64,000 nucleotides of DNA. It comes from Elusimicrobiota bacterium. Lineage in GTDB: Bacteria; Elusimicrobiota; Elusimicrobia; Elusimicrobiales; UBA9959. The notes under the pieces were generated by a model. It made no database searches, had not been told where the DNA came from, and saw only the letters and a program-made list of their open reading frames with translations. The DNA is taken from the NCBI GenBank assembly GCA_016208085.1, contig JACQYT010000016.1:1-64000 (forward strand), read 5' to 3'. A program made the translations under genes and the position numbers. Positions 1 to 13,506 of the stretch are shown one piece after another (position 1 is the first letter of the stretch; every line of letters starts with the position of its first letter).

Positions 1-297
1 GTGAAACCGGAGGCGCAGGAGCAAAATCTGCTCTGGGAATTGGTTTTAAAATCCGGCTACGACCTGAACACCAAAATATCAGAACAAAAAGCCGGAAAAT
101 GCCGGTTTTATTCCGTGGCTAACGGGGAGATGGCGGTTATACTCGGCAAAGCGGACGAAAAATGCCTGCAAGAGATAGTAAAACTCAAACCGCAGAAAGT
201 TGTCTGCCTGGACAACATTTTCCAAGCCAACGACCAGCTAAAAACCAACGCAGCCCTGCAAATGAAAGACGCCGGAATAGAATTCAGGACGGTGTAA
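1..297 (+). CDS. mod: C-terminal fragment of type III restriction-modification methyltransferase (Mod), truncated by window edge
   Basis: C-terminal string KVVCLDNIFQANDQLKTNAALQMKDAGIEFRTV is typical of Mod C-termini; a type III Res gene follows downstream. Confidence 0.7.
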   Translation: MKPEAQEQNLLWELVLKSGYDLNTKISEQKAGKCRFYSVANGEMAVILGKADEKCLQEIVKLKPQKVVCLDNIFQANDQLKTNAALQMKDAGIEFRTV

Positions 298-322
298 TAT
301 TGGTTGCTTTAAGGAGCATGAT

Positions 323-1501
323 ATGCAAATTGAATCGCTGTCCATAAAAAATTTCGGGCCTTTCAAAGATGTCGTTATAAAGGATATCCCCGCGATGGCG
401 GTGTTTGTCGGCGCAAATGGAAGCGGCAAATCCTCGCTATTCTCGGTCTTCGGATTTTTGCGCGACTGCCTGGTTCATAACGTGAAATACGCGCTGATCA
501 ACAAGGGCGGATTTAATGAAGCCGTCAGCCGCGGCACCGGCGGGCCGATCTCATTTGAGATCAAATTCCGCGAAGGTATCGCGGAACCTTTGGCGACATA
601 TAGTTTATCTATAGCCTTGGAACAGGGAGCGCCTGTGGTTGCAAAAGAACAATTAAAATACAGGAGGGGACGGCGAGGGCAGCCATGGAAATTCCTGGAT
701 TTTAAGTTGGGCGAGGGCGAGGCCGTTATAAACGAGGACGACTATGGGAAACCAGCGGCTGAAATGAAGCGCGACTGGCACAAACTGGAATCAAACGATA
801 TTCTTGCGGTAAAAGGCCTGGGCCAGTTTGAAAAATTCAAGGTTGTGGCGTCTTTCAGGAAATTGATCGAAAACTGGCATGTTTCGGATTTCCATATCTC
901 GGATGCCCGGCCCAGCCAGGAGGCGGGCGTGGCCGAACATCTTTCCTCGCGCGGCGATAATCTGCCCCGGGTGGCCCGGCACCTGTATGAAAATCACCGG
1001 CCGTTGTTTGATCAAATACTCGAGAAAATGAAAAAGCGCGTGCCGGGAGTCCGGGATGTGCAGGCTGTTTCCACGGAGGACGGCCGCATGGTCCTCAAAT
1101 TCCATGATGGTTCGTTCAAGGACCCGTTCATCGCCAGGTATGTTTCCGACGGGACCATTAAAATGTTCGCGTATCTCCTGTTGCTGCATGATTCGAAGCC
1201 TTATCCGCTGCTGTGCGTTGAGGAGCCGGAGAACCAGCTTTATCCCCAACTGTTGACCGAATTAACGGAGGAATTCCGGGACTACGCCCGGAGAGGCGGC
1301 CAGGTTTTTGTCTCAACCCATTCCCCCGAATTCCTGAACAGTATACAACTTGACGAAATATACTGGCTCAGCAAGAACGCCGGCTATACCGCCGTAAAAA
1401 AAGCCTCCGAATCCGGACTTTTGAATAATCTCGTTCAGGAAGGGGATATCCCGGGAACATTATGGAAGCAGGGACTGTTTGAGGGAGTTGATCCAAAATG
1501 A
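323..1501 (+). CDS. AAA family ATPase (AAA_15/AAA_21, OLD/AriA-like)
   Basis: N-terminal ABC-type fold with Walker A GANGSGKSS; C-terminal LLCVEEPENQLYP Walker B and STHSPEFLN motif. Confidence 0.8.
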   Translation: MQIESLSIKNFGPFKDVVIKDIPAMAVFVGANGSGKSSLFSVFGFLRDCLVHNVKYALINKGGFNEAVSRGTGGPISFEIKFREGIAEPLATYSLSIALEQGAPVVAKEQLKYRRGRRGQPWKFLDFKLGEGEAVINEDDYGKPAAEMKRDWHKLESNDILAVKGLGQFEKFKVVASFRKLIENWHVSDFHISDARPSQEAGVAEHLSSRGDNLPRVARHLYENHRPLFDQILEKMKKRVPGVRDVQAVSTEDGRMVLKFHDGSFKDPFIARYVSDGTIKMFAYLLLLHDSKPYPLLCVEEPENQLYPQLLTELTEEFRDYARRGGQVFVSTHSPEFLNSIQLDEIYWLSKNAGYTAVKKASESGLLNNLVQEGDIPGTLWKQGLFEGVDPK

Positions 1502-2046
1502 CAAAGCTCGTTGTAATGTTGGAGGAAAAATCGGCGAAAATGTTCTTGAACGCCGTTTTGCCCAAAATCGCCCCCCGGCTTAACTTTGTTTTGATAACGC
1601 ATGAAGGGAAGAAAGATCTGGAAAATTCCCTTCCCCGGAAGCTCCGCGCATGGCGGGAACCGGATGTGCGGTTTCTTGTTTTAAGGGACAAGGATTCTAA
1701 AGATTGCGTCCGGCTTAAGAAAAGGTTGCAGAAAATATGCAGAGATTCCGGCCGTTCCGATACCAGGATCAGAATAGCTATCCATTGCCTTGAATCCTGG
1801 CTTTTAGGCGATTTGAAGGCTGTTTCTTTCGCTTATCATAATCCGTCAATAGCGGCCCTCTCCTCCCGGGCAAAATTCCGCTATCCTGACAGGCTTGCCA
1901 ACGCCGAGGATGAATTGTTAAAGATAGTGCCGGAATATCAGAAAGTCGGCGGCGCCAGAGTTATTGCTCCCTTTATCGATCTTTCTGCAAATCGTTCGCA
2001 CAGTTTTAAGGTTTTCATTGAAACTATAAGGCAATTTGCCGTATAA
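1498..2046 (+). CDS. DUF4276 family protein, possible TOPRIM-like nuclease partner
   Basis: 4-bp ATGA overlap with the ATPase; RDKDSKDC and HCLESWLLGD motifs characteristic of DUF4276. Confidence 0.7.
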   Translation: MTKLVVMLEEKSAKMFLNAVLPKIAPRLNFVLITHEGKKDLENSLPRKLRAWREPDVRFLVLRDKDSKDCVRLKKRLQKICRDSGRSDTRIRIAIHCLESWLLGDLKAVSFAYHNPSIAALSSRAKFRYPDRLANAEDELLKIVPEYQKVGGARVIAPFIDLSANRSHSFKVFIETIRQFAV

Positions 2047-2057
2047 AATTTCATTTT

Positions 2058-4712
2058 ATGAAACTCCATTTTGACGCGAACCAGGATTACCAGCTTCAGG
2101 CTATTCAGGCCGTGCTCGGGCTTTTTGAGGGGCAGCCGCTGAATAAGGGGGAGTTTGAGTTCTCCCTTGGCGGCAGTAACGGACTGGGGCTTAAATTTTC
2201 CGGAGTTCGCAATGATTTGGCTGTTTCAGAGGAACAGGTTTTAAAAAATCTGCAAGAGGTCCAAAAAACCAATGGACTGGCGGCCTCCGAAAAGCTCGAG
2301 GGGCTTAATTTTTCCGTTGAAATGGAAACCGGCACAGGCAAGACTTATGTGTATCTGCGCGCAATTTATGAACTTAACAAGCGGTATGGCTTTAAGAAGT
2401 TTGTAATAGTGGCGCCCAGTATTGCCATAAAAGAAGGCGTTCTTAAAAATCTTGAGATAACCGCCGGGCATTTCCAGACCATCTACGACAAAATTCCTGT
2501 CACATACCAGGTTTATTCCGCCGAGAGGGTTTCTTCTCTCAGAAGCTTTGCCGACAGCAACGCCATACAGATTCTTGTCATAAATATTGATTCTTTCACC
2601 AAAGATGAGAATGTAATCAGTAAACCCAATGACAAATTGAACGGCAAAAAGCCCGTGGAGTTCATCCAGGCGGCCAGGCCTATAGTGATTGTGGACGAGC
2701 CGCAGAATATGGAGACGGATATAAGGAAAAGGGCTATAGCGAATTTAAATCCGGCTTTTACTCTCCGCTATTCGGCGACTCATAAAAATCTTTACAATCT
2801 AATTTACAAATTAGACCCGGTCCAGGCCTATGATCTGGGACTTGTGAAACAAATAGAAGTGGACTCGGTTTTTGCCTCAAACGACAGGAACAGAGCATTT
2901 ATACAGATTGAAGATTTTAAAACCGCTAAAAAAGGCCTGGCGGTTAAACTGAAGATTGATGTAAACGCGAAAAATGCCGTCGAACGTAAAATACTTACCG
3001 CAAAAAATGGCGACGACCTGTATGCGCTTTCCAATAAACGCGATGTCTACAAAGACGGCTATATTATCAACAACATAGACGCGCGGGAAGGCTGCGTTGA
3101 GTTCTCAAACGGCGATGTCCTTTATAAAGGCCAGACGCACGGCGGGCTTAATGACCGGATAATGAAGTACCAGATGGAAAAAGCCATTGAGGAACACTTT
3201 AAAAAGGAGTTGAAGCTGACCGCGAAAGGCGTTAAAGTGCTTTCCCTTTTCTTTATAGACCGGGTTGACAATTACCGCCATTACACGGAACAGGGAACTA
3301 CCCAGAAAGGCAAGTTCGCCGGGTGGTTTGAAGAAATTTACACAAGATTCAGGCAGAAACCCATGTATGCCCCAATAGCCGGACATCCGGCGGACAAGGT
3401 GCACAATGGTTATTTTGCGCAGGACAAGAAAGGCGTACTTAAAGACTCTTCGGAAGGCCGGGAAACAAAAGCTGATGATGATGTTTACCAGCTTATAATG
3501 AAAGACAAAGAGCGTCTTTTGGATATAAGCGAGCCGTTGAAATTCATTTTCAGCCATTCGGCTTTGCGCGAGGGCTGGGATAATCCCAATGTGTTCCAGA
3601 TTTGCACTCTGAATGAAACACGGTCAGAGATGAAGAAAAGACAGGAAATCGGGCGCGGTTTGAGGCTTTGTGTTGACCAGAGCGGTATGCGCTTAAGGGA
3701 TAAGAATATAAACCGGCTTACGGTTATAGCTAACGAAAGCTATGAAGATTTTGCAAAAAGGCTTCAAACCGAGATTGAAGATGAATGCGGGGTAAATTTT
3801 GAAGGAAGAATAAAAAATAAGCGCGACCGAGTAAAGATCAAATTTAGAAAAGGCTTTGAACTTGACCCGAAGTTTCTTGAACTCTGGGAGAAGATAAAGC
3901 AAAAAACCACCTACAGGGTTAAATACGACACTGCCGAGCTTATAAAAATCTCCGCCAGGAAGATAAAAGCCATGCCCGAGGTCCAAAAACCTGTTATAAG
4001 GGCTGTCCGGGCTGAAATTACAATGGGCAGGAACGGCGTGGTTGCCGGAGTTTCGGGTGAGACGTTCGCAGGCGACGCTTATCCCCTGCCGAAGATGGAA
4101 ATCCCCGATGTGGCGGGTTATATCCAGAGCAAAACAGAACTTACCCGCGCGACAGTTCTTGAAATTTTAAAGAAATCCGGCCGGCTGTCCGACATAATGG
4201 TTAATCCGCAGCTTTTTCTGGACCTGGCGGTAAATGAAATCAGGAGCGTCCTTCACGAACTGATGATTGACGGCATAAAATACGAGAAAATAGCCGGGCA
4301 GGAATACGCGATGATGCTTTTCTCCGACCAGGAGATTGAAGCTTACACTGATAATCTTCACAAAATCACCAAAGCGGAAAAGACGATTGCCGACCATATT
4401 GTTATTGATTCCATGTCCAAGGTGGAAAAGAAATTTGCCGAAGACTGCGAGCGCAACGACAATGTGGAGTTTTTTATCAAACTGCCGGGCTGGTTTACGA
4501 TTCAAACCCCGATTGGAGAATATAACCCGGACTGGGCGCTGATTTATAAAAATGAAAGCCGGATTTGTTTTGTCGCCGAGACAAAATCCACTTTGGACCA
4601 GAGCAAGCAAAGGCCGCATGAGTCAATGAAAATAAAATGCGGCAAAGCGCATTTCAGGGAATTCCCGGAAGTTAAATATAAGGATGTTAAAGAGCTTTCG
4701 GAATTATTGTAA
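2058..4712 (+). CDS. res: Type III restriction endonuclease subunit Res (DEAD/DEAH helicase + nuclease)
   Basis: METGTGKTYVYLRAI Walker A, VDEPQNM, SALREGWDNPNVFQICTLNETRSEMKKRQEIGRGLRL helicase motif VI, C-terminal NPDWALI...AETKS nuclease motif. Confidence 0.9.
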   Translation: MKLHFDANQDYQLQAIQAVLGLFEGQPLNKGEFEFSLGGSNGLGLKFSGVRNDLAVSEEQVLKNLQEVQKTNGLAASEKLEGLNFSVEMETGTGKTYVYLRAIYELNKRYGFKKFVIVAPSIAIKEGVLKNLEITAGHFQTIYDKIPVTYQVYSAERVSSLRSFADSNAIQILVINIDSFTKDENVISKPNDKLNGKKPVEFIQAARPIVIVDEPQNMETDIRKRAIANLNPAFTLRYSATHKNLYNLIYKLDPVQAYDLGLVKQIEVDSVFASNDRNRAFIQIEDFKTAKKGLAVKLKIDVNAKNAVERKILTAKNGDDLYALSNKRDVYKDGYIINNIDAREGCVEFSNGDVLYKGQTHGGLNDRIMKYQMEKAIEEHFKKELKLTAKGVKVLSLFFIDRVDNYRHYTEQGTTQKGKFAGWFEEIYTRFRQKPMYAPIAGHPADKVHNGYFAQDKKGVLKDSSEGRETKADDDVYQLIMKDKERLLDISEPLKFIFSHSALREGWDNPNVFQICTLNETRSEMKKRQEIGRGLRLCVDQSGMRLRDKNINRLTVIANESYEDFAKRLQTEIEDECGVNFEGRIKNKRDRVKIKFRKGFELDPKFLELWEKIKQKTTYRVKYDTAELIKISARKIKAMPEVQKPVIRAVRAEITMGRNGVVAGVSGETFAGDAYPLPKMEIPDVAGYIQSKTELTRATVLEILKKSGRLSDIMVNPQLFLDLAVNEIRSVLHELMIDGIKYEKIAGQEYAMMLFSDQEIEAYTDNLHKITKAEKTIADHIVIDSMSKVEKKFAEDCERNDNVEFFIKLPGWFTIQTPIGEYNPDWALIYKNESRICFVAETKSTLDQSKQRPHESMKIKCGKAHFREFPEVKYKDVKELSELL

Positions 4713-4735
4713 AATAAAATTTGAAAGGAGAAAGT

Positions 4736-6832
4736 ATGCCGAAAAAATCTGAAAAAACAGTGAAGCGCGCGGCGGCGGTAAAAAATATTTCAGCGGAGAA
4801 ACCCGGTCTTGCCCTTTCGGCGCCGGGCGAAAGCGAACCCCTCCGTCCTGAAACGCAGGCCGGGCGCGTCGTCATTGAGAACGTCAGGCCCGAAATAGAC
4901 GGCGGCCGGTTTCCCATAAAGCGCGCGGCGGGGGAGGAGGTCTGCGTGGAGGCGGACATTTTCGCGGACGGACACGACGAACTGGTGTGCGAACTCCTCT
5001 GGCGCAAAGATAATGAGACAGCCTGGAAGCGGATCCCGATGCGGCCCCTCGGCAACGACCGCTGGCGGGCCGAGTTCACGGCCGCGGAACTGGGGGAGTA
5101 CCGTTACACCGTCCAGGGCCGGGTGGACTGTTTCCTGACATGGCTCAGGGATTTAAAGAAGCGGCTGGAAGCCGCTCAGGACGCGCGGCTGGAACTGCCG
5201 GCCGGCGCGGAACTGGTTGCCGCGGCCGCGGCCAGAGCCGCCGGCGTCCAGAAAGACGCCCGGCGTCTTGCCGCGCTGGCGCGCGACCTGGGGACGGACG
5301 GAGAGCCCGGCGAAAAGGCGGCCCGGCTGGCCGACCCGGAGTTGACAGGGCTGGTTTCCCGGTGGGGCGGCGATGACGAGCTTGTCCGGTATGAAAAAGA
5401 ACTGGAGGTTTGGGTGGATCCCGTGCATGCCCGCTTCGGCGCGTGGTATGAGGTGTTTCCCCGATCCTGCTCGCCTGAACCGGGGCGGCACGGCACGTTC
5501 AACGATCTTATCGCGCAGCTGCCGTATATCTCGGGGATGGGGTTTGACGTGCTCTATCTGCCGCCCATCCACCCGGTGGGCAAAACCCACCGCAAAGGCG
5601 CAAATAATTCCCTGAAAGCCGGGCCGAAGGATCCGGGCAGCCCCTGGGCCATAGGCGACAAGACCGGCGGTCACAAGGCTGTCAACCCTGAGCTCGGAAC
5701 GCTGGAAGATTTCAGGCGGTTGGCAAAAGCGGCGAAGTCGCACGGCATGGATATCGCGCTGGATGTTGCCCTGCAGTGCTCGCCCGACCATTCCTGGCTG
5801 CGCGAGCATCCGGAATGGTTCCGGCGGCGGCCGGACGGAAGCCTGCGCTACGCGGAGAACCCCCCGAAAAAATATGAGGACATCTATCCGCTGGATTTTT
5901 GCTGCCTCGACCGGCGGCCGTTGTGGGACGAGGTCAAAAGCATCTTTAAGTTCTGGCTGGACCAGGGCGTGCGCATTTTCCGCGTGGATAATCCCCACAC
6001 CAAGCCTTTCGCATTCTGGGAATGGCTTATCCGCGATCTCCGGCGGGAGAACCCGGACCTGATCTTACTGGCCGAGGCTTTCACGCGGCCCAGGGTTATG
6101 TACCGCCTGGCCAAGGCGGGCTTCAACCAGTCCTACAATTATTTTCCCTGGCGCAACTCCAAGCGGGAGCTGGAGAGCTATTTTACCGAATTGACCCGCA
6201 CTGAGGCCGGGGAGTTCTTCCGGCCGAACCTCTGGGTCAACACGCCGGATATTCTCACCGAGTATCTGCAGTTCGGCGCTCGCCCCGCCTTCATGACGCG
6301 CTATGCGCTGGCCGCCACGCTGGGCGCCAGCTGCGGCGTTTACGGCCCGGCGTTTGAATTGTGCGAGCGCGCGCCGCGGGAAGCGGGCCGCGAGGAGTAC
6401 CTGGATTCCGAAAAATACGAGATAAAGCATTGGAACCTTGACCGCCCGGACAGCATCCGGGATTTCATCGCGCGCGTCAACCGCATCCGCCGGGAGAACC
6501 CCGCGCTGCAGAACGACGCCAGCCTGCGGTTTTTCCCGCTGGATAATGAACAGCTTATCTGCTACGGGAAACAGGCGGGGGACGATTTTGTGCTGGTGGT
6601 GGTCAACCTGGACCCGCACTACAAACAATCCGGGTGGGTGGAGCTGCCGCTCGCGGAGCTCGGCTTGTCGCAAAATAAGCGTTATCAGATGCATGATCTG
6701 CTGACTGATAGGCGTTACTTATGGCAGGGGCCGCGCAATTACGTGGAACTGGACCCGCGCGCGTGCCCGGCCCACCTCTTCCGACTGCGGCGCTACGCGA
6801 GGACCGAACAGGACTTTGATTACTTTCTGTAA
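4736..6832 (+). CDS. glgE: alpha-1,4-glucan:maltose-1-phosphate maltosyltransferase
   Basis: Full-length GlgE-like: DUF3416-type N-terminus, DVLYLPPIHPVGKTHRKGANN, FRVDNPHTKP, LAEAFTRPRVM; ATG at 4736 after an AAAGGAG RBS. Confidence 0.9.
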   Translation: MPKKSEKTVKRAAAVKNISAEKPGLALSAPGESEPLRPETQAGRVVIENVRPEIDGGRFPIKRAAGEEVCVEADIFADGHDELVCELLWRKDNETAWKRIPMRPLGNDRWRAEFTAAELGEYRYTVQGRVDCFLTWLRDLKKRLEAAQDARLELPAGAELVAAAAARAAGVQKDARRLAALARDLGTDGEPGEKAARLADPELTGLVSRWGGDDELVRYEKELEVWVDPVHARFGAWYEVFPRSCSPEPGRHGTFNDLIAQLPYISGMGFDVLYLPPIHPVGKTHRKGANNSLKAGPKDPGSPWAIGDKTGGHKAVNPELGTLEDFRRLAKAAKSHGMDIALDVALQCSPDHSWLREHPEWFRRRPDGSLRYAENPPKKYEDIYPLDFCCLDRRPLWDEVKSIFKFWLDQGVRIFRVDNPHTKPFAFWEWLIRDLRRENPDLILLAEAFTRPRVMYRLAKAGFNQSYNYFPWRNSKRELESYFTELTRTEAGEFFRPNLWVNTPDILTEYLQFGARPAFMTRYALAATLGASCGVYGPAFELCERAPREAGREEYLDSEKYEIKHWNLDRPDSIRDFIARVNRIRRENPALQNDASLRFFPLDNEQLICYGKQAGDDFVLVVVNLDPHYKQSGWVELPLAELGLSQNKRYQMHDLLTDRRYLWQGPRNYVELDPRACPAHLFRLRRYARTEQDFDYFL

Positions 6833-6869: not shown

Positions 6870-9671
6870 ATGCGCATGAAATTAACCGGTAAATGCCTGC
6901 TTATCTGGCTGTTGACGGCAGTTGATGTTCCGGCCCTCTTTGCCGCTCAGGTATGCTTTAATGACCGCGGCCAATCGTTCGGCTGCCGCGACGACGCCTA
7001 CTGCGTGCCGAACGTGCGCGGCAAACAGGCATGCCGTTTAAAACGCGATGCGAATAAATATTACTGGCCTGTGCCGGTGAAAGCGCCTTCCGGTTTTGAA
7101 AAAACACGGGAAGAAAGCGGCGGCGCGGCCTGCATGTCCCGGTTCAGGCCTTTCCTGGCGTACGCGGAGAGCGCCGGGGATTGGCGCCGGAAGATCGCCT
7201 ATTACAGCCAGGCTATTAACGGCTGGCTGCCTTGCGACGGCAAAGAGAAAAAAGCCGACGCTTACACGGGCCGCGGCTTTGCCCGCACCCAGATAGGCGA
7301 TTACCAGGCCGCCGAGAACGATTTCAAAACGGCCCTCAGCTTCAATCCTCAGGATCCCCTGCCGCATAACTACCTCGGGTCTGTTTACTACGATCAGCAA
7401 AAGTATGATGACGCCGTCAGCGAGTTTGATATGGCTTTTGCGTTGCAGCTGGAGGACAGGGATCCCGTGGCCGCGCGCGTCGCGGGCCGGTTCTACGAGC
7501 TCGCGGTTAAGGAGCAGGAAAAAGCAAAGCGGGAGAGAGCCGAGCGGGCGAAAGCGCAGCAGGCGGCGCGAAATGCTCAGGCCGCTGCGCCAAAACAGAG
7601 CGAAGGCCCCGTTGACGCGCCTGCCGGGCCCTCACCCGGGCAGCCGCATCTGTCGCCGGGGAGCGCCCCCGGCGGCAGCTCGAACCCTGCCGTCCCCGGG
7701 CAGACCCCCCCCGGGGCTGGGGGGGCCCCGGCGAACCCCTCCGCGGACCTGCCTGAACCCGCCAAAGTTCGCGTGTTCAAACCGCTGCCGGGAAAACCGG
7801 CGGGAAGCGACTGGGTGCGTTATTGCGTTATAGGTTTATTTTTGACGACGGCGCTCTTCCTTGCCGTTACCTATCTGGTCTTAAAAGGCGATCAGGGCAG
7901 GATCCGCCGCGAGCTCGGTCCCCTGGCAAAGGAACTGGGCGTAGACGTCCAATGGATGTTCTTCGGTTTTTTCATACCTCCGGACACGGAGTTCCACGGC
8001 AAGCTTATGATAACCCTGGTCCTCTGCTCGGTGCTGGGGTCTATAGCCGCCGGTTTTGTGTTTTTTAAATTTTCCCTGGACGTCGCCGTCAAAATACTGT
8101 CCGGCCCGATAATATCCGGCGCCATAGCGTGCTTAAGCGTTTTCGCCTCTTATTCCCTTAAGACAGGCGCCGGCCTGGAGCCGCAAGCCGGCTGCGGCCC
8201 CGCCGCCGCGCCCCCCCAAAGCCCGGGGGGGACGCCCGCCCCGCCGAATTATGAACGGCCGCCCGCGGCAATACCGGATTTTTCGGGGCTTCAGTCCAGG
8301 CCGGAGACGACCGGCCGCGAGTTAAGATCTTCAGCGGCGCGTTCCCGGCAGGTTAAAGCCCTTATGGACGCTGGAAACTACCAGGAGGCCCTTGAGCTGT
8401 TTTCCAGGAAGCGCCAGTTAAAAATAACCGACGCCGATAAAGACCAGCTTTTTGAGATCTATATCCGGCTCGGGGATTTTGACAGGGCCGGCAATCTGTT
8501 CGGCTCGCTGAAAGGCAGCGCTCTGCTGACGGGAAATATCGCGCGTTACGAGGAGCTGGCCGCCGTTTGCCGTAATAAAGGCGGGCAAGGCCTGGCCCGC
8601 AGGATCTGCAGCGGTCTGTTCGAAGCCCTGAAACCGGCCACGCGCGTGGCCGCCGGCGCGCCTGTGTATTATAAACTTGCGGCGTTTTGCGAGAGCCTGG
8701 GCGACGCCGAACTGGCGCGCGATATTTTCCGGCACATGATTGAGGCGGGATTTGAGAAATATCGGGACGTGTCCGCCCGCTACGAAGACCTGAAGACCAG
8801 GCTCTTCGTGGCCGTCGCGCCGGCGCAGCGCAACGCTCCCGCCGCCGGGGCCGCCGCAACCGGAGGCGCGGTTATCGGGGCTGTGCTTAACAATCAATAT
8901 GAGATAAAAGGCGAGCTCGGCGAGGGGGGCATGGCCAAGGTCTATGAAGGCCTGGACAGGAAGACGAGCCGGAAAGTGGCGGTCAAAAAGATGCATCCCT
9001 GGCTGAAAAAATTCCCGGAGGAGCACAAGCGGTTCGTGCAGGAAGCCAGGATAGTCAGCCGGCTTAACCACCCTAATATCGTGGGCGTGCAGGCGATCGT
9101 GGAGCAGGAGGGGGAAATATATCTGATCTTTGATTATGTGGACGGGAAGACCCTGTCCGACCTGTTAAAAGCGAAAGGTCTTTTGCAATTCCAGGAATGC
9201 AAGGACATTTTGAAAGGCGTGTGCGGAGCGGTCCAGTACGCCCATAAAACCAACGTCATTCACAGGGACCTTAAACCTTCCAACATAATGATAACCAGGG
9301 ACGGCGTCGCGCTGGTGATGGATTTCGGGCTGGCGAGCGAGCTGCGGGAAAGCCTCACGAGAGTGACCCATCAGACGACATCCGGAACGCCGGCCTATAT
9401 GGCGCCGGAGCAGTACCTGGGCGTGGTTAAGCGGGAATCCGATATTTACGCGATGGGCGTCTGCTTTTATGAGATGCTGACGGGAAAGCTCCCGTTCACG
9501 ACGGGGGACATTATGCAGCTGAAGAACGACAGGGAGTTCCGCGAGGTCAGCGCCCAGCTGCCGTGGCTGCCGGCCGGGATCGACGAGATCGTCTCCCGCG
9601 CGCTGGCCCCCGAGCCGTCGCAGAGGTTCGCCGACCCGATGGAATTCTTCGACGCGCTCAATAAACTGTGA
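6870..9671 (+). CDS. TPR-containing transmembrane Ser/Thr protein kinase
   Basis: TPR-like N-terminus, Pro-rich linkers, TM segments, C-terminal kinase with GELGEGGMAKVYEG, VAVKK, HRDLKPSNIM, DFGLA, GTPAYMAPEQ. Confidence 0.88.
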   Translation: MRMKLTGKCLLIWLLTAVDVPALFAAQVCFNDRGQSFGCRDDAYCVPNVRGKQACRLKRDANKYYWPVPVKAPSGFEKTREESGGAACMSRFRPFLAYAESAGDWRRKIAYYSQAINGWLPCDGKEKKADAYTGRGFARTQIGDYQAAENDFKTALSFNPQDPLPHNYLGSVYYDQQKYDDAVSEFDMAFALQLEDRDPVAARVAGRFYELAVKEQEKAKRERAERAKAQQAARNAQAAAPKQSEGPVDAPAGPSPGQPHLSPGSAPGGSSNPAVPGQTPPGAGGAPANPSADLPEPAKVRVFKPLPGKPAGSDWVRYCVIGLFLTTALFLAVTYLVLKGDQGRIRRELGPLAKELGVDVQWMFFGFFIPPDTEFHGKLMITLVLCSVLGSIAAGFVFFKFSLDVAVKILSGPIISGAIACLSVFASYSLKTGAGLEPQAGCGPAAAPPQSPGGTPAPPNYERPPAAIPDFSGLQSRPETTGRELRSSAARSRQVKALMDAGNYQEALELFSRKRQLKITDADKDQLFEIYIRLGDFDRAGNLFGSLKGSALLTGNIARYEELAAVCRNKGGQGLARRICSGLFEALKPATRVAAGAPVYYKLAAFCESLGDAELARDIFRHMIEAGFEKYRDVSARYEDLKTRLFVAVAPAQRNAPAAGAAATGGAVIGAVLNNQYEIKGELGEGGMAKVYEGLDRKTSRKVAVKKMHPWLKKFPEEHKRFVQEARIVSRLNHPNIVGVQAIVEQEGEIYLIFDYVDGKTLSDLLKAKGLLQFQECKDILKGVCGAVQYAHKTNVIHRDLKPSNIMITRDGVALVMDFGLASELRESLTRVTHQTTSGTPAYMAPEQYLGVVKRESDIYAMGVCFYEMLTGKLPFTTGDIMQLKNDREFREVSAQLPWLPAGIDEIVSRALAPEPSQRFADPMEFFDALNKL

Positions 9672-9693
9672 GTTTTTCCGCCTAGCGGAAAGT

Positions 9694-9750
9694 TGCAGCG
9701 GTCGCATTATTATATGCGACAATCTCTGCGATGGTAATCGCACCGCTACA
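9694..9750. repeat. Cloverleaf-like palindromic element, copy 1
   Basis: GCAGCGGTCGCAT-tattat-ATGCGAC...TGCGATggtaATCGCACCGCTAC: outer stem enclosing two hairpins. Confidence 0.7.
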
Positions 9751-9765
9751 CTCATAACTCAAAAC

Positions 9766-10011
9766 TTATACCTTGCCTTTAAAGTTCAGAATTACCGCTA
9801 TCATAAAAAGTATCCCGGCTAGGCCGCCCCAGAACAGAATATTGCCGGCCAGGCGGCCGGTTTTTTGCGCTGCGCTCATCGGGGGCGGCTGCGCGCCTCC
9901 GGCGGCCGGCGCCGGGGAAAATTTCCTGCGCAGCAGCGCGCCCGCGGCCACCGGCACAAAAGGCAGCGCCAGCAGCAGCGCGGTTTCCAGTATATAGTTC
10001 AGGTCGGTCAT
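9766..10011 (-). CDS. Small membrane protein
   Basis: MTDLNYILETALLLALPFVPV...ILFWGGLAGILFMIAVIL with two TM stretches; ATG overlaps the upstream stop by 4 bp. Confidence 0.6.
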   Translation of the reverse strand: MTDLNYILETALLLALPFVPVAAGALLRRKFSPAPAAGGAQPPPMSAAQKTGRLAGNILFWGGLAGILFMIAVILNFKGKV

Positions 10012-11441
10012 GGCGCGCTCACCTCGCGGCCGTCCTGGTAGCAGGCTTTCTTGCCGGCCACGTAGCCGGGGGTCGTGGCTTCCTGATTGCCTATTATGCG
10101 CGTTACCAGCGGCAGGCGGCCCGGCACCAGTCCGAAGGTGCGGTAGCCGCATACAATAGCGCCTTTCACGCCCAGGCTGGTGTCCAGGGCCAGGTCCGCG
10201 TTCCAGGTCTTTTCCCACTGCCGCTTGGCCTGGGCGGCGGGTAAGCCGTCGGCCCTGTCCTGGAAATACGGCAGGCTGAAGTAGAGCAGGCGGCGGGCCA
10301 CCATGGAAAGACCCACGGCCGGGTTAAGCGTGGGGCCGCCTATGGAGGCGGTGTTGCAGCCGGAAAACTGTATCACTCCGCCCCTGGCCATTTTTCCCTT
10401 CAGCAGCTGCGCGGCGGACTCGGCGTCGTAGGTTTCGGCGCCCACGGTCTGCATGCCGGGGGAACCGTGGCCGTAGAGTATTATTTTGGAGATGGAGCCG
10501 TCGGGCAGCCGGCGTATGGCGGCTTGCGCGTCTTTGGCTTGGCGGAAGGTCCTCGGTTTGGGGCTGCCGGCCACATACACCGTTATGCCGTAGGCGTCCG
10601 AGGTGAGGGCCGTGGACTTTTTTTCTTCAGGCGGCGCCGTTTTTATTCCCGGCGCGGCTTTCAGTTCCGGTATGGCGAAAGCCGGTTTTTTTTGCGGTTC
10701 GGCAAGAGTGAGCCCGCCCGCCGCGCCTTTCCCGGAGTACCGGGCTCCGCCGACAGCCACCGGGCCGCCGCCTGAAACGTTCATGCCGTCGTAGAGCCTG
10801 GAGAAGCTGTCGGCGTTGAGCGCCGAGGGGGCCTCCGCCGTGAATTTATCCAGCGCGGCGGCGGAGGCGCTCTCCGGCCGCGCTGCGGCGGTGAAAGCGC
10901 TTTCCGGATGCGCCGCGTCCTCCGTATTCTGCCCGGGCGGAACTTCGGCCGCGGACTCCGGCGGGCGCAGTTCCGCTATGGCCTCCGGCAGCAGGTATGG
11001 TTCAAGGGCCAGGGCGTCCCGGTCGTTGAGCCCGCGCCCGGCTTTGGCCAGTTTCTCCCGGATTACGGCCAGCTTGCGGGCCAGGGCTTCGGCTTTTTCA
11101 TTTCCCAGCCAGAACCGTACGATCCGTATATCTTCTTCGCCGGTCTGCTCGGCGTAATCCCGCAGCTGCGCGCTGTCCCATTTCTTTACCGCGTCGGCGT
11201 GGTATTCCTGTATCTCCGCCTGTCTTTCCAGCGCGGGCCGGCGGGCGTCGAGCAGCGCCCGTTCCTGCGCCTCCGGCGTCAGGGCCGCCCATATTTTCGG
11301 GTTAAAGGAGCCCCGCTCCTGGAAATATTTGAATTCAGCCGCGTATTCGCGGGCGTTCCAGAACACGCTCTCCCGGGCGCAGGCGTAACTCCCGGCCAGG
11401 CCCGGCAAAAGGAAAAGCAGGAGAAGGCGCAGGTATTGCAT
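10008..11441 (-). CDS. Secreted protein with caspase-like (clan CD / DUF4347-like) C-terminal domain
   Basis: Signal peptide MQYLRLLLLFLLPGLAGSYACA; C-terminal IILYGHGSPG and VIQFSGCNTAS spacing suggests a His/Cys dyad. Confidence 0.55.
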   Translation of the reverse strand: MQYLRLLLLFLLPGLAGSYACARESVFWNAREYAAEFKYFQERGSFNPKIWAALTPEAQERALLDARRPALERQAEIQEYHADAVKKWDSAQLRDYAEQTGEEDIRIVRFWLGNEKAEALARKLAVIREKLAKAGRGLNDRDALALEPYLLPEAIAELRPPESAAEVPPGQNTEDAAHPESAFTAAARPESASAAALDKFTAEAPSALNADSFSRLYDGMNVSGGGPVAVGGARYSGKGAAGGLTLAEPQKKPAFAIPELKAAPGIKTAPPEEKKSTALTSDAYGITVYVAGSPKPRTFRQAKDAQAAIRRLPDGSISKIILYGHGSPGMQTVGAETYDAESAAQLLKGKMARGGVIQFSGCNTASIGGPTLNPAVGLSMVARRLLYFSLPYFQDRADGLPAAQAKRQWEKTWNADLALDTSLGVKGAIVCGYRTFGLVPGRLPLVTRIIGNQEATTPGYVAGKKACYQDGREVSAP

Positions 11442-11558
11442 AAAGATAACCGGATACGCACTTATAGTCTACATCATAATATCTCATTGTCAAGGGCTTT
11501 TTAGCCGGAAAATTTGATAATATTATATTTACGGCTATCAATAGGCACAGGAGAATAT

Positions 11559-11813
11559 ATGGAAGAAAAGGAAATAGGAAAGATAAGTCATTACTTCGGA
11601 CACATCGGGGTCGGTATAATAGAGCTTACGGATGCGCTCAAAGTCGGAGACAGCGTGCGCATCAAGGGACACACGACGGACCTCAAGGAAACGGTGGAGT
11701 CAATGCAGCTTGATCACAACAGCGTCGGCGAGGCCGTCAAAGGGCAGGCTGTCGGGATAAAAGTCGCGGCCAAGGTCCATCCCAACGACAAGGTCTACAA
11801 GCTGATTCCGTAA
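11559..11813 (+). CDS. Translation elongation factor-like (EF-Tu domain II-like) small protein
   Basis: MEEKEIGKISHYFGHIGVGIIELTDALKVGDSVRIKGHTTDLKETVESMQLDH; RBS caggaga. Confidence 0.75.
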   Translation: MEEKEIGKISHYFGHIGVGIIELTDALKVGDSVRIKGHTTDLKETVESMQLDHNSVGEAVKGQAVGIKVAAKVHPNDKVYKLIP

Positions 11814-12027
11814 CGAATGAACCGCCGGGAAATTTTGGCCGCCATTTTCAAACGGGCCGGCATAAAGTTTGCTTTCCAGTCTTCATTACAATACTTGGTT
11901 ATTCATTTATCTTCCGGGTTAAGCGTTTTAAATCTTTACGATCCTGTTCCCGGTCAGCATACTGTTTTAGAAGTATAAGGTCTTTGTGGGATATATAACG
12001 AATATTTACTTTCCTTAAACTGAATCA

Positions 12028-12138
12028 TTATACCACTTTGTTGCGGAAGTTCTTGTCCGCGCGCACGCGCACCTGGTAGAGCTCGTCGGTATCCTTAAAT
12101 TTGGTTATGTCCTCCTCGCCGCCCACCAGATAAAGTGG
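12028..12138 (-). pseudogene. Fragment resembling RND efflux transporter
   Basis: Reverse-strand reading PLYLVGGEEDITKFKDTDELYQVRVRADKNFRNKVV* resembles an internal AcrB-family motif; no start or continuation. Confidence 0.4.
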
Positions 12139-12452
12139 GAAACGGCAGTTGATAAGTTGACAAGCAAGAAAGTTGCGGCGCTTATCAACCAGTCAACTTA
12201 TAAACTTATCAACTTTCCTAAAATTCGGCCTGGGTCTTAAGTCCTATTCCGGCATAGGTCCATTTTCCTTGCCCGTCTGGGTCTAAGGCCCCTGCCGCAG
12301 GCACGCCGTTATGAGATAAACTAATATAAGAGGTTGTCTCTTGTAATCCTTCGAAGAGGCGAAGGAGCATCCACCTCCGGACCGATGAATCCGGGGTCAC
12401 CAGGGGAAACGGAATATTTGTATTATTTTCGTTTCCTCGTTTTATTTTCCGG

Positions 12453-13448
12453 ATGGAAAACATGCAAATGTCAAAGTACGCGTTGTCGGCCTGTCTGATC
12501 TTTTTGGTTTCCGCGCCCGCTTTCTCCCAGGAAGACTATAACCCCCAGGAGGTCAACCCCTTTTTAGACCCGGCTTTGCAGGATTACGTTGAAACCGTTT
12601 ACGGCTACAGGAACCCGGCCAATGCCCCGAAGTTCGCCTCTGATTTCCGCGACACGCTGACTTCCCTGTCCGTCGCCGCGCTTAAAAGCGCCCTGGCCGG
12701 CCGCCGTCCCGGCGGCTCCGCCTCCCAGCCGTCCATCCGCCCAGCCGCTCCCCTTCCTCAGCCCTCAGCCCTCAGCCCTCAGCCTTCATCCTTTCCCCAG
12801 GACCGCCTGCCGAACGTCTTGAACAGCATCGGCGAATCACATGGCTCCGGAGGCAGCCTGGCTGTGCCCGGCCAATACTACAAAGTCACGTTCGCCAATG
12901 AAAACGGCCCTTTGTCCGCTTTCGTCGCCCCGCTGGCCCCCGACGCTTTATCCGGCTTTAAGGCCGGAGAATATGTTTTTATAAGTATACTGCCCGCGAC
13001 CGCTGATCACGCCCGGTTAATAGACGCCTTGTCCAAAACCGGCTTCAAATTCTCCGGCGAGAAGACTTATTTCACCGATTCGGGAAAAAAGACCTTTCTG
13101 CTGGGCTGGGCGCCCTACGCTAATCTCCCCGCTATCTGCGGGCAGCAGGGGGTGCGCAAGGTGGCCGTGGAAAAAAAGACTTCGGGCGTGCCGCTCAAGA
13201 CCAGGATACGGTTCACGCTGAGAGCGCCCTCCGGAGAGCGCTCAGACGCTTTTGTCTCCGATTTCCTTAAAAACCTCAATACCCGCACCGGGTTCGCTTC
13301 CGAAAACGTGCTGCGCCTGCCCCAGAATTCCGCGCATGCCAAGTTCACGGCTTTTGACGTAACCGGCAGCCTGCCGGTTGACATGATAGGCGAATTATCC
13401 CAATCCCCCTTCGTAGCCGCCATAGAATTCAAAGACAACGCGCTGTAA
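12453..13448 (+). CDS. Secreted hypothetical protein with repeat-derived linker
   Basis: Signal peptide MSKYALSACLIFLVSAPAFSQ; central PQPSALSPQPSSFPQ linker encoded by a cagccctcagccctcag repeat. Confidence 0.6.
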   Translation: MENMQMSKYALSACLIFLVSAPAFSQEDYNPQEVNPFLDPALQDYVETVYGYRNPANAPKFASDFRDTLTSLSVAALKSALAGRRPGGSASQPSIRPAAPLPQPSALSPQPSSFPQDRLPNVLNSIGESHGSGGSLAVPGQYYKVTFANENGPLSAFVAPLAPDALSGFKAGEYVFISILPATADHARLIDALSKTGFKFSGEKTYFTDSGKKTFLLGWAPYANLPAICGQQGVRKVAVEKKTSGVPLKTRIRFTLRAPSGERSDAFVSDFLKNLNTRTGFASENVLRLPQNSAHAKFTAFDVTGSLPVDMIGELSQSPFVAAIEFKDNAL

Positions 13449-13506
13449 ATAATCCGCGCAACAAAAAATTTGACAGGCCGCCCTTGAGTTCACAAAGACC
13501 GCTCTT

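What the first reader, a model, noticed from the sequence alone, without database searches (positions are those of the whole stretch)
1..4712. AAA ATPase + DUF4276 pair nested between mod and res of a type III R-M system
Order is mod(3' end)-ATPase-DUF4276-res, all same strand, with a 4-bp overlap inside the pair and 12 bp before res. ATPase plus TOPRIM-type partner pairs act in defence (OLD/Gabija-like, PARIS AriA-AriB). DUF4276 has an acidic RDKDSKDC motif compatible with TOPRIM-like chemistry. Nesting suggests a composite defence operon, possibly a back-up triggered when R-M is inhibited, as proposed for PARIS.
Basis: partly seen in the sequence, partly recalled or inferred. Interest (0 to 1): 0.72.

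Follow-up and report, generated by a model that had tools for sequence, protein, structure and literature searches.

The report
Swappable defence pair inside restriction operon
Between the two genes of a bacterial DNA restriction system sits a known candidate antiviral pair (an ATPase plus a predicted nuclease), and close relatives carry other defence genes at exactly the same spot, which suggests an exchangeable slot for back-up defences.

Summary
In detail: mod 3' end (1-297), ABC ATPase (323-1501), DUF4276 (1498-2046), res (2058-4712), one strand, 4-bp overlap inside the pair. The pair is not new as a family: PADLOC calls both halves HEC-01 (Hma-embedded candidate). DUF4276 folds as a TOPRIM nuclease domain (pLDDT 95; OLD TOPRIM Z 12.3, AriB 8.9, GajA 8.2), with E9, G37, D64xD66 and E99 where OLD nucleases hold their metals. 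The ATPase is of the ABC/SMC-Rad50/OLD type, not AAA+.

The survey goes further. The pair recurs between modification and restriction genes of other systems (Hma, type I, DrmD/Mod-like) and stands alone elsewhere. The mod|res junction of this type III lineage is itself a slot: the same-genus relative (res 89% identical) has a Schlafen-like gene there, with homology breaking at the mod end and resuming at the res start codon. Others carry an OLD nuclease, a PrrC/RloC-like protein, GmrSD, RhuM or YhcG; about half are empty.

Best reading: an OLD-type sensor-nuclease pair acting as an exchangeable back-up to restriction. Trigger and target are untested. New variant of a known kind; interest 0.5.

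The parts
1..297 (+). 3' end of the type III modification gene (mod), cut by the contig start
   Evidence: PADLOC MTase_III 3.3e-13; 87% identical to residues 525-622 of the L160 mod; 5' part on contig C82
323..1501 (+). HEC-01 ATPase, 392 aa, ABC (OLD/Rad50/SMC-head) type
   Evidence: PADLOC PDLC04144 2.7e-183; AAA_21 6.4e-36; AF2 model pLDDT 88 matches SMC/Rad50 heads Z 21 and PtuA Z 20
410..433 (+). Walker A GANGSGKS (residues 30-37 of the ATPase)
   Evidence: G30, G33, G35, K36 invariant in 57 relatives
1498..1501 (+). ATGA overlap of ATPase stop and DUF4276 start
   Evidence: sequence; -4 or -1 overlaps recur in relatives
1498..2046 (+). DUF4276 protein, 182 aa, TOPRIM nuclease-like effector (HEC-01)
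   Evidence: PF14103 1.2e-16; PADLOC PDLC04143 5.6e-61; AF2 pLDDT 95; OLD TOPRIM match
1522..1524 (+). E9, TOPRIM glutamate after strand 1
   Evidence: invariant in 59 sequences; same position as BpOLD E400 after strand 1
1687..1695 (+). D64-x-D66, TOPRIM DxD after strand 3 (inside RDKDSKDC)
   Evidence: invariant; corresponds by topology to BpOLD D455/D457
1792..1794 (+). E99, start of the helix after strand 4; candidate second-metal ligand
   Evidence: invariant; same place in the order as BpOLD E508 in the first helix of the helical domain
298..2057 (+). cargo slot between mod and res
   Evidence: blastn against L160: homology covers 1-284 and 2058-5000, nothing between
2058..4712 (+). type III restriction gene (res), helicase plus PF19778 endonuclease
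   Evidence: REase_III 4.5e-296, ResIII, PF19778 7.2e-35

Best explanation
The insert is a two-gene OLD-type module (PADLOC HEC-01): an ABC ATPase that senses or gates, plus a separate TOPRIM-fold, presumably metal-dependent nuclease (DUF4276). It is carried in an exchangeable slot between mod and res of a type III R-M operon and most likely acts as a back-up ('guardian') that fires when phage activity or R-M inhibition is sensed, with the ATPase releasing or activating the TOPRIM nuclease to cut nucleic acid and stop phage growth. Shown here: the gene order, the predicted fold and conserved acids, the pair as a unit, repeated nesting in modification-based defence systems, and precise replacement by other cargo. 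Inferred: nuclease activity, the trigger, the substrate (DNA as in OLD/Gabija, or tRNA as in PARIS) and any physical link to Mod/Res.
For: TOPRIM fold (pLDDT 95; Foldseek 6nk8 E 2.8e-5; VIA Z 12.3 OLD, 8.9 AriB, 8.2 GajA) with E9, G37, DxD and E99 invariant in 59 relatives, matching the published TOPRIM motifs and BpOLD metal ligands (PMC6755086). ATPase of the SMC/Rad50/PtuA type with invariant Walker A. Pair in 78 of 84 relatives across many phyla. Nested between HmaB and HmaC (10 of 56 upstream and 8 of 46 downstream neighbours), hsdMS and hsdR, DrmD-like helicase and Mod. Same slot in related type III loci: OLD nuclease, PrrC/RloC-like AAA_13, Schlafen-like, GmrSD, RhuM, YhcG. Exact swap against L160. 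Constraint on both genes. PrrC and PARIS are described as R-M guardians (PMC12707154).
Against: No experiment. Many pairs stand alone or lie next to housekeeping genes (prfB/lysS in Methylococcales), so R-M is not obligatory. About half of the sampled mod|res junctions are empty. In this assembly mod may be broken: a 136-bp deletion with frameshift on C82 relative to L160. Such a slot may simply collect defence genes without functional coupling.
Confidence: 0.6

Rival explanations
1. Independent defence module that hitch-hikes: the pair is an ordinary stand-alone anti-phage system, and the mod|res junction is merely a tolerated insertion site that gives it co-transcription; there is no regulatory link to restriction.
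For: Many copies stand alone or beside unrelated genes; cargo types are very diverse; empty slots are common.
Against: Repeated placement precisely between modification and restriction subunits of several unrelated systems, and occupants that include homologues of the known R-M-linked effector PrrC.
Confidence: 0.3
2. Accessory subunit of the R-M: ATPase plus TOPRIM modifies or extends restriction, for example as an extra nuclease recruited to Mod-bound unmethylated DNA.
For: Location in the operon; short intergenic spacing; TOPRIM nucleases of the OLD class cut DNA (PMC6755086).
Against: Close R-M relatives have unrelated cargo or none at the same place, so the R-M does not need this pair; res keeps its own endonuclease domain.
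Confidence: 0.07
3. Decaying or non-functional insertion in a broken R-M locus.
For: mod is split over two contigs, and the C82 part carries a 136-bp deletion relative to L160.
Against: ATPase, DUF4276 and res are all full length; non-synonymous change is far below synonymous change (dN 0.145 against dS 1.13 for DUF4276; pN 0.05 against pS 0.74 for the ATPase); the relative L041 has the same order.
Confidence: 0.03

Closest known systems
HEC-01 (PADLOC, Hma-embedded candidate; HECs are cited in PMC12988326 to the Payne 2024 preprint)
   Same: Both proteins match full length (2.7e-183 and 5.6e-61); same gene order as the pairs found between HmaB and HmaC
   Different: Here it sits between mod and res of a type III R-M, not in Hma
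PARIS (AriA-AriB)
   Same: Separate ABC ATPase and TOPRIM genes; TOPRIM folds alike (AriB Z 8.9)
   Different: No AriB family match; DUF4276 is 182 aa against about 305 aa for the AriB chains; trigger and target unknown
OLD nucleases / Gabija GajA / retron-Eco8 effector
   Same: OLD-type ABC ATPase plus TOPRIM; best fold match is the BpOLD TOPRIM; corresponding acids
   Different: Two genes instead of one fused protein; no GajB helicase and no retron next to it
PrrC/RloC in type I R-M loci
   Same: ATPase-based effector nested in an R-M operon; a PrrC/RloC-like AAA_13 protein occupies the same mod|res slot in L168 and L219
   Different: Anticodon nuclease rather than TOPRIM; type I rather than type III; coupling to the R-M has been shown for PrrC (PMC12707154), not here
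Back-up effectors nested in BREX and BREX-related loci (PMC12839542)
   Same: Same principle: OLD-ABC plus nuclease dyads inside modification-based systems
   Different: BREX/BR hosts, not type III R-M

Membership tests
HEC-01 (PADLOC) | ATPase matching a HEC-01 ATPase model over its length | tested here: met
   PDLC04144, residues 1-392 on 1-395 of 395, 2.7e-183
HEC-01 (PADLOC) | adjacent DUF4276 partner matching a HEC-01 model | tested here: met
   PDLC04143, residues 1-180 on 1-183 of 190, 5.6e-61; 4-bp overlap
TOPRIM domain | Glu after strand 1, Gly after strand 2, DxD after strand 3, in a parallel alpha/beta fold | tested here: met
   E9, G37, D64xD66 invariant; strands 3-8, 29-34, 57-64, 90-94; motif definition from PMC6755086
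OLD family nuclease | TOPRIM fold most similar to OLD, paired with an ABC ATPase | tested here: met
   6nk8 E 2.8e-5, Z 12.3; ABC head Z 21
OLD family nuclease (classes 1-3) | ATPase and TOPRIM fused in one protein | tested here: not met
   two separate ORFs, 323-1501 and 1498-2046
PARIS | AriB-family TOPRIM partner | tested here: not met
   no AriB hit; AriAB only 0.016
PARIS | triggered by anti-restriction proteins such as Ocr; tRNA cleavage | not testable with these tools
   needs experiment
Type III R-M | mod methyltransferase and res helicase-endonuclease in one operon | tested here: met
   MTase_III on the 3' end and REase_III; both genes present in L041 and L160
R-M guardian (PrrC/PARIS-like role) | nested effector activated when its R-M is inhibited | not testable with these tools
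   only nesting and cargo company tested

The most novel reading that the evidence does not exclude
The mod|res junction of type III R-M operons is a dedicated exchange slot for R-M-coupled guardian effectors: different nucleases and toxins (HEC-01 TOPRIM pair, OLD, PrrC/RloC-like, Schlafen-like, GmrSD, RhuM, YhcG) replace one another at the exact gene boundaries and are each kept silent or sensed through the same Mod/Res complex.
Probability: 0.3. Interest if true: 0.75.

Novelty: new variant of a known kind. Interest (0 to 1): 0.5.

Why it matters
Nested effectors that punish phages for disabling restriction are well documented for type I R-M (PrrC) and proposed for BREX; a type III R-M with an interchangeable slot would extend the principle to a third class. 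It would give natural matched pairs (same R-M, different or no cargo) to test whether an R-M complex controls whatever sits in its operon. It also puts a fold and a probable active site on DUF4276, a family without an assigned function, and flags the mod|res junction as a place to look for new defence genes.

Tried and rejected
Membership in PARIS: rejected, no AriB match. Sequence search of DUF4276 in the PDB, single and profile: nothing relevant; only fold comparison showed the relation. AAA+ assignment of the ATPase: replaced by ABC/SMC-head type. Pair as an obligate type III R-M partner: rejected, among 84 relatives only L041 has mod|pair|res. Literature: DUF4276, and HEC-01 in PADLOC papers, gave no hits; 'between mod and res' gave only unrelated papers; the Payne 2024 preprint is not held. 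No promoter or terminator signal above chance in the operon. L204 (600-bp gap, only an antisense ORF) is not counted as cargo; L170, L212, L213, L219 have broken res genes and are left out of the counts.

Full report
OBSERVATION. The first 4.7 kb hold four genes on one strand: the 3' end of a type III mod (1-297), an ATPase (323-1501), a DUF4276 protein (1498-2046) and a full-length res (2058-4712). The pair overlaps by ATGA; 11 bp separate it from res. Pfam and PADLOC confirm each gene. The window starts at the end of a contig. The right end of contig C82 of the same genome carries a mod 5' part, 93% identical over its N-terminus to the mod of a same-genus relative, so mod is probably one gene split over two contigs; this join is inferred. 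The closest relatives found are Elusimicrobia MAGs.

WHAT THE PAIR IS. PADLOC matches both proteins over their whole length to HEC-01, one of the 'Hma-embedded candidates' (PMC12988326). The DUF4276 protein, modelled from 59 relatives, gives a very confident alpha/beta fold (pLDDT 95, pTM 0.89). Its best matches are the TOPRIM regions of OLD nucleases (Foldseek 6nk8 E 2.8e-5; VIA Z 12.3 over 166 residues), then AriB of PARIS (Z 8.9) and GajA of Gabija (Z 8.2). Rows near Z 7-8 include unrelated Rossmann-like folds, so the AriB and GajA matches alone would be weak; the OLD match stands clear. TOPRIM is defined by a Glu after strand 1, a Gly after strand 2 and DxD after strand 3, and in BpOLD E400, D455, D457 and E508 bind or support two metals (PMC6755086). 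DUF4276 has E9, G37, D64xD66 and E99 at these places, all invariant in 59 sequences. The correspondence is by topology and order; a residue-level superposition was not available. The ATPase model (pLDDT 88) matches SMC and Rad50 heads (Z 21) and PtuA (Z 20), with invariant Walker A residues. It is an ABC-type, OLD-like ATPase; 'AAA' is a database name.

THE PAIR IS A UNIT AND MOVES BETWEEN SYSTEMS. DUF4276 follows directly in 78 of 84, mostly with 4-bp or 1-bp overlaps. Of 56 same-strand upstream neighbours, 10 are HmaB and 4 HsdS; of 46 downstream neighbours, 8 are HmaC, 3 HsdR, 2 PglZ and 2 MTase_III. Single loci show HmaB|pair|HmaC (L054, L068, L069, L075, L106 and others), hsdM-hsdS|pair|hsdR (L072, L078) and DrmD-like helicase|pair|MTase_III (L024, L113). 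Many copies are outside such systems: alone on a cyanobacterial plasmid or between prfB and lysS in Methylococcales, one clade. On the ATPase tree the contexts need 18 changes where 6 is the least possible. Only the window and L041 have mod|pair|res.

THE SLOT. The strongest new result comes from the R-M side. Relatives of this res in Elusimicrobiota were collected and their mod|res junctions read. The same-genus genome G228 (L160) has res 89% and mod C-terminus 87% identical to the window, but a Schlafen-AlbA_2/HATPase_c_4 gene in between. DNA homology with the window covers 1-284, stops at the mod end, and resumes at 2058, the first base of res. On the res tree the window is sister to L160 (SH-aLRT 99), while L041, which shares the window's cargo, lies outside: cargo and R-M backbone have been exchanged. 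G228 has its own HEC-01 pair (82/70% identical) downstream of an HmaB gene. Other occupants of the junction: a single-gene OLD nuclease (L167; PF20469, PADLOC Old 1e-53), a PrrC/RloC-like AAA_13 protein (L168, and L219 beside a broken res), Schlafen-like proteins (L164, L165, L166, L216), GmrSD (L175, L177, L180, L206), RhuM (L179, L214), YhcG/DUF1016 nuclease (L174, L228), and a ParB_N protein (L161). Counting loci with mod found upstream on the same strand and res not broken: 19 occupied with same-strand ORFs, 21 empty (gap under 100 bp), including one duplicate in each set. Occupancy needs at least 8 changes on well-supported branches of the 26-row res tree (one row, L162, has an unknown state and was entered as occupied). 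The sample favours relatives of this res and is not random, so the fraction is not a general rate.

CONSTRAINT. Window against L041: DUF4276 dN 0.145, dS 1.13; ATPase pN 0.05, pS 0.74 (saturated); res pN 0.10, pS 0.75. The pair is kept as protein.

MECHANISM. Most likely an OLD-type sensor/nuclease pair serving as back-up defence. Shown: predicted fold, acids, pairing, nesting, exchange. Inferred: metal-dependent nuclease activity, release by the ATPase, activation on R-M inhibition or another phage cue, and the substrate. The case for coupling rests on company: PrrC, whose relatives occupy this same slot, is nested in a type I R-M and fires when that R-M is inhibited (PMC12707154), and OLD-ABC/TOPRIM dyads are proposed back-up effectors in BREX (PMC12839542). 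The rival, hitch-hiking without coupling, remains plausible, since many pairs live alone and slots are often empty.

NOVELTY. The pair is a member of a catalogued candidate family. The TOPRIM assignment of DUF4276, the type III location and the exchangeable mod|res slot were not found in the papers searched, but the key preprint on embedded defences is not held, so part of this may already be described there.

Noticed in passing
L173 (contig C82) 3646-4884, with window 1-297: The mod 5' part lacks 136 bp relative to the same-genus L160 mod and shifts frame at about L173:4112; either mod is broken in this organism or the assembly is wrong there.
   Followed up: partly
L044, L056, L063, L064, L065 around 9000-13500; L046 4700-9100; L057 1-3700: In Methylococcales the pair lies among housekeeping genes: release factor 2 (prfB) upstream and lysyl-tRNA synthetase downstream in most of these loci; one clade. 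tRNA-Lys is the target of PrrC and AriB, which may be coincidence.
   Followed up: no
L038 3009-11913 (minus strand): A much more distant ATPase/DUF4276-like pair followed by a 750-aa unknown protein, then mod and res: a second, different way of joining such a pair to a type III R-M.
   Followed up: partly
L024 1085-8612 and L113 6227-13649: DrmD-like helicase, HEC-01 pair, MTase_III and a PADLOC candidate (PDC-S02 or PDC-S05) in one operon: a DISARM-like system with the pair in the middle.
   Followed up: partly
L121-L124: Four IMG/VR viral contigs carry close relatives of the ATPase (55-62% identical), two of them without a recognisable DUF4276.
   Followed up: no
L163 2592-6132: Three-gene cargo in the mod|res slot: a 349-aa protein without family, a PDC-S32-like protein and a DUF4062/HATPase_c_4 protein.
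   Followed up: no
L020 1-12000 (Synechocystis pSYSM): The pair sits beside DUF4007, cysteine desulfurase and a phosphorothioation-associated methyltransferase gene, resembling a type 4 BREX neighbourhood (PMC12839542).
   Followed up: no
window 4721-6832 and 6870-9671: Directly after res lie an alpha-amylase-family protein that resembles a maltosyltransferase and a TPR/Ser-Thr kinase protein, read by eye; no sign that they belong to the defence locus.
   Followed up: no
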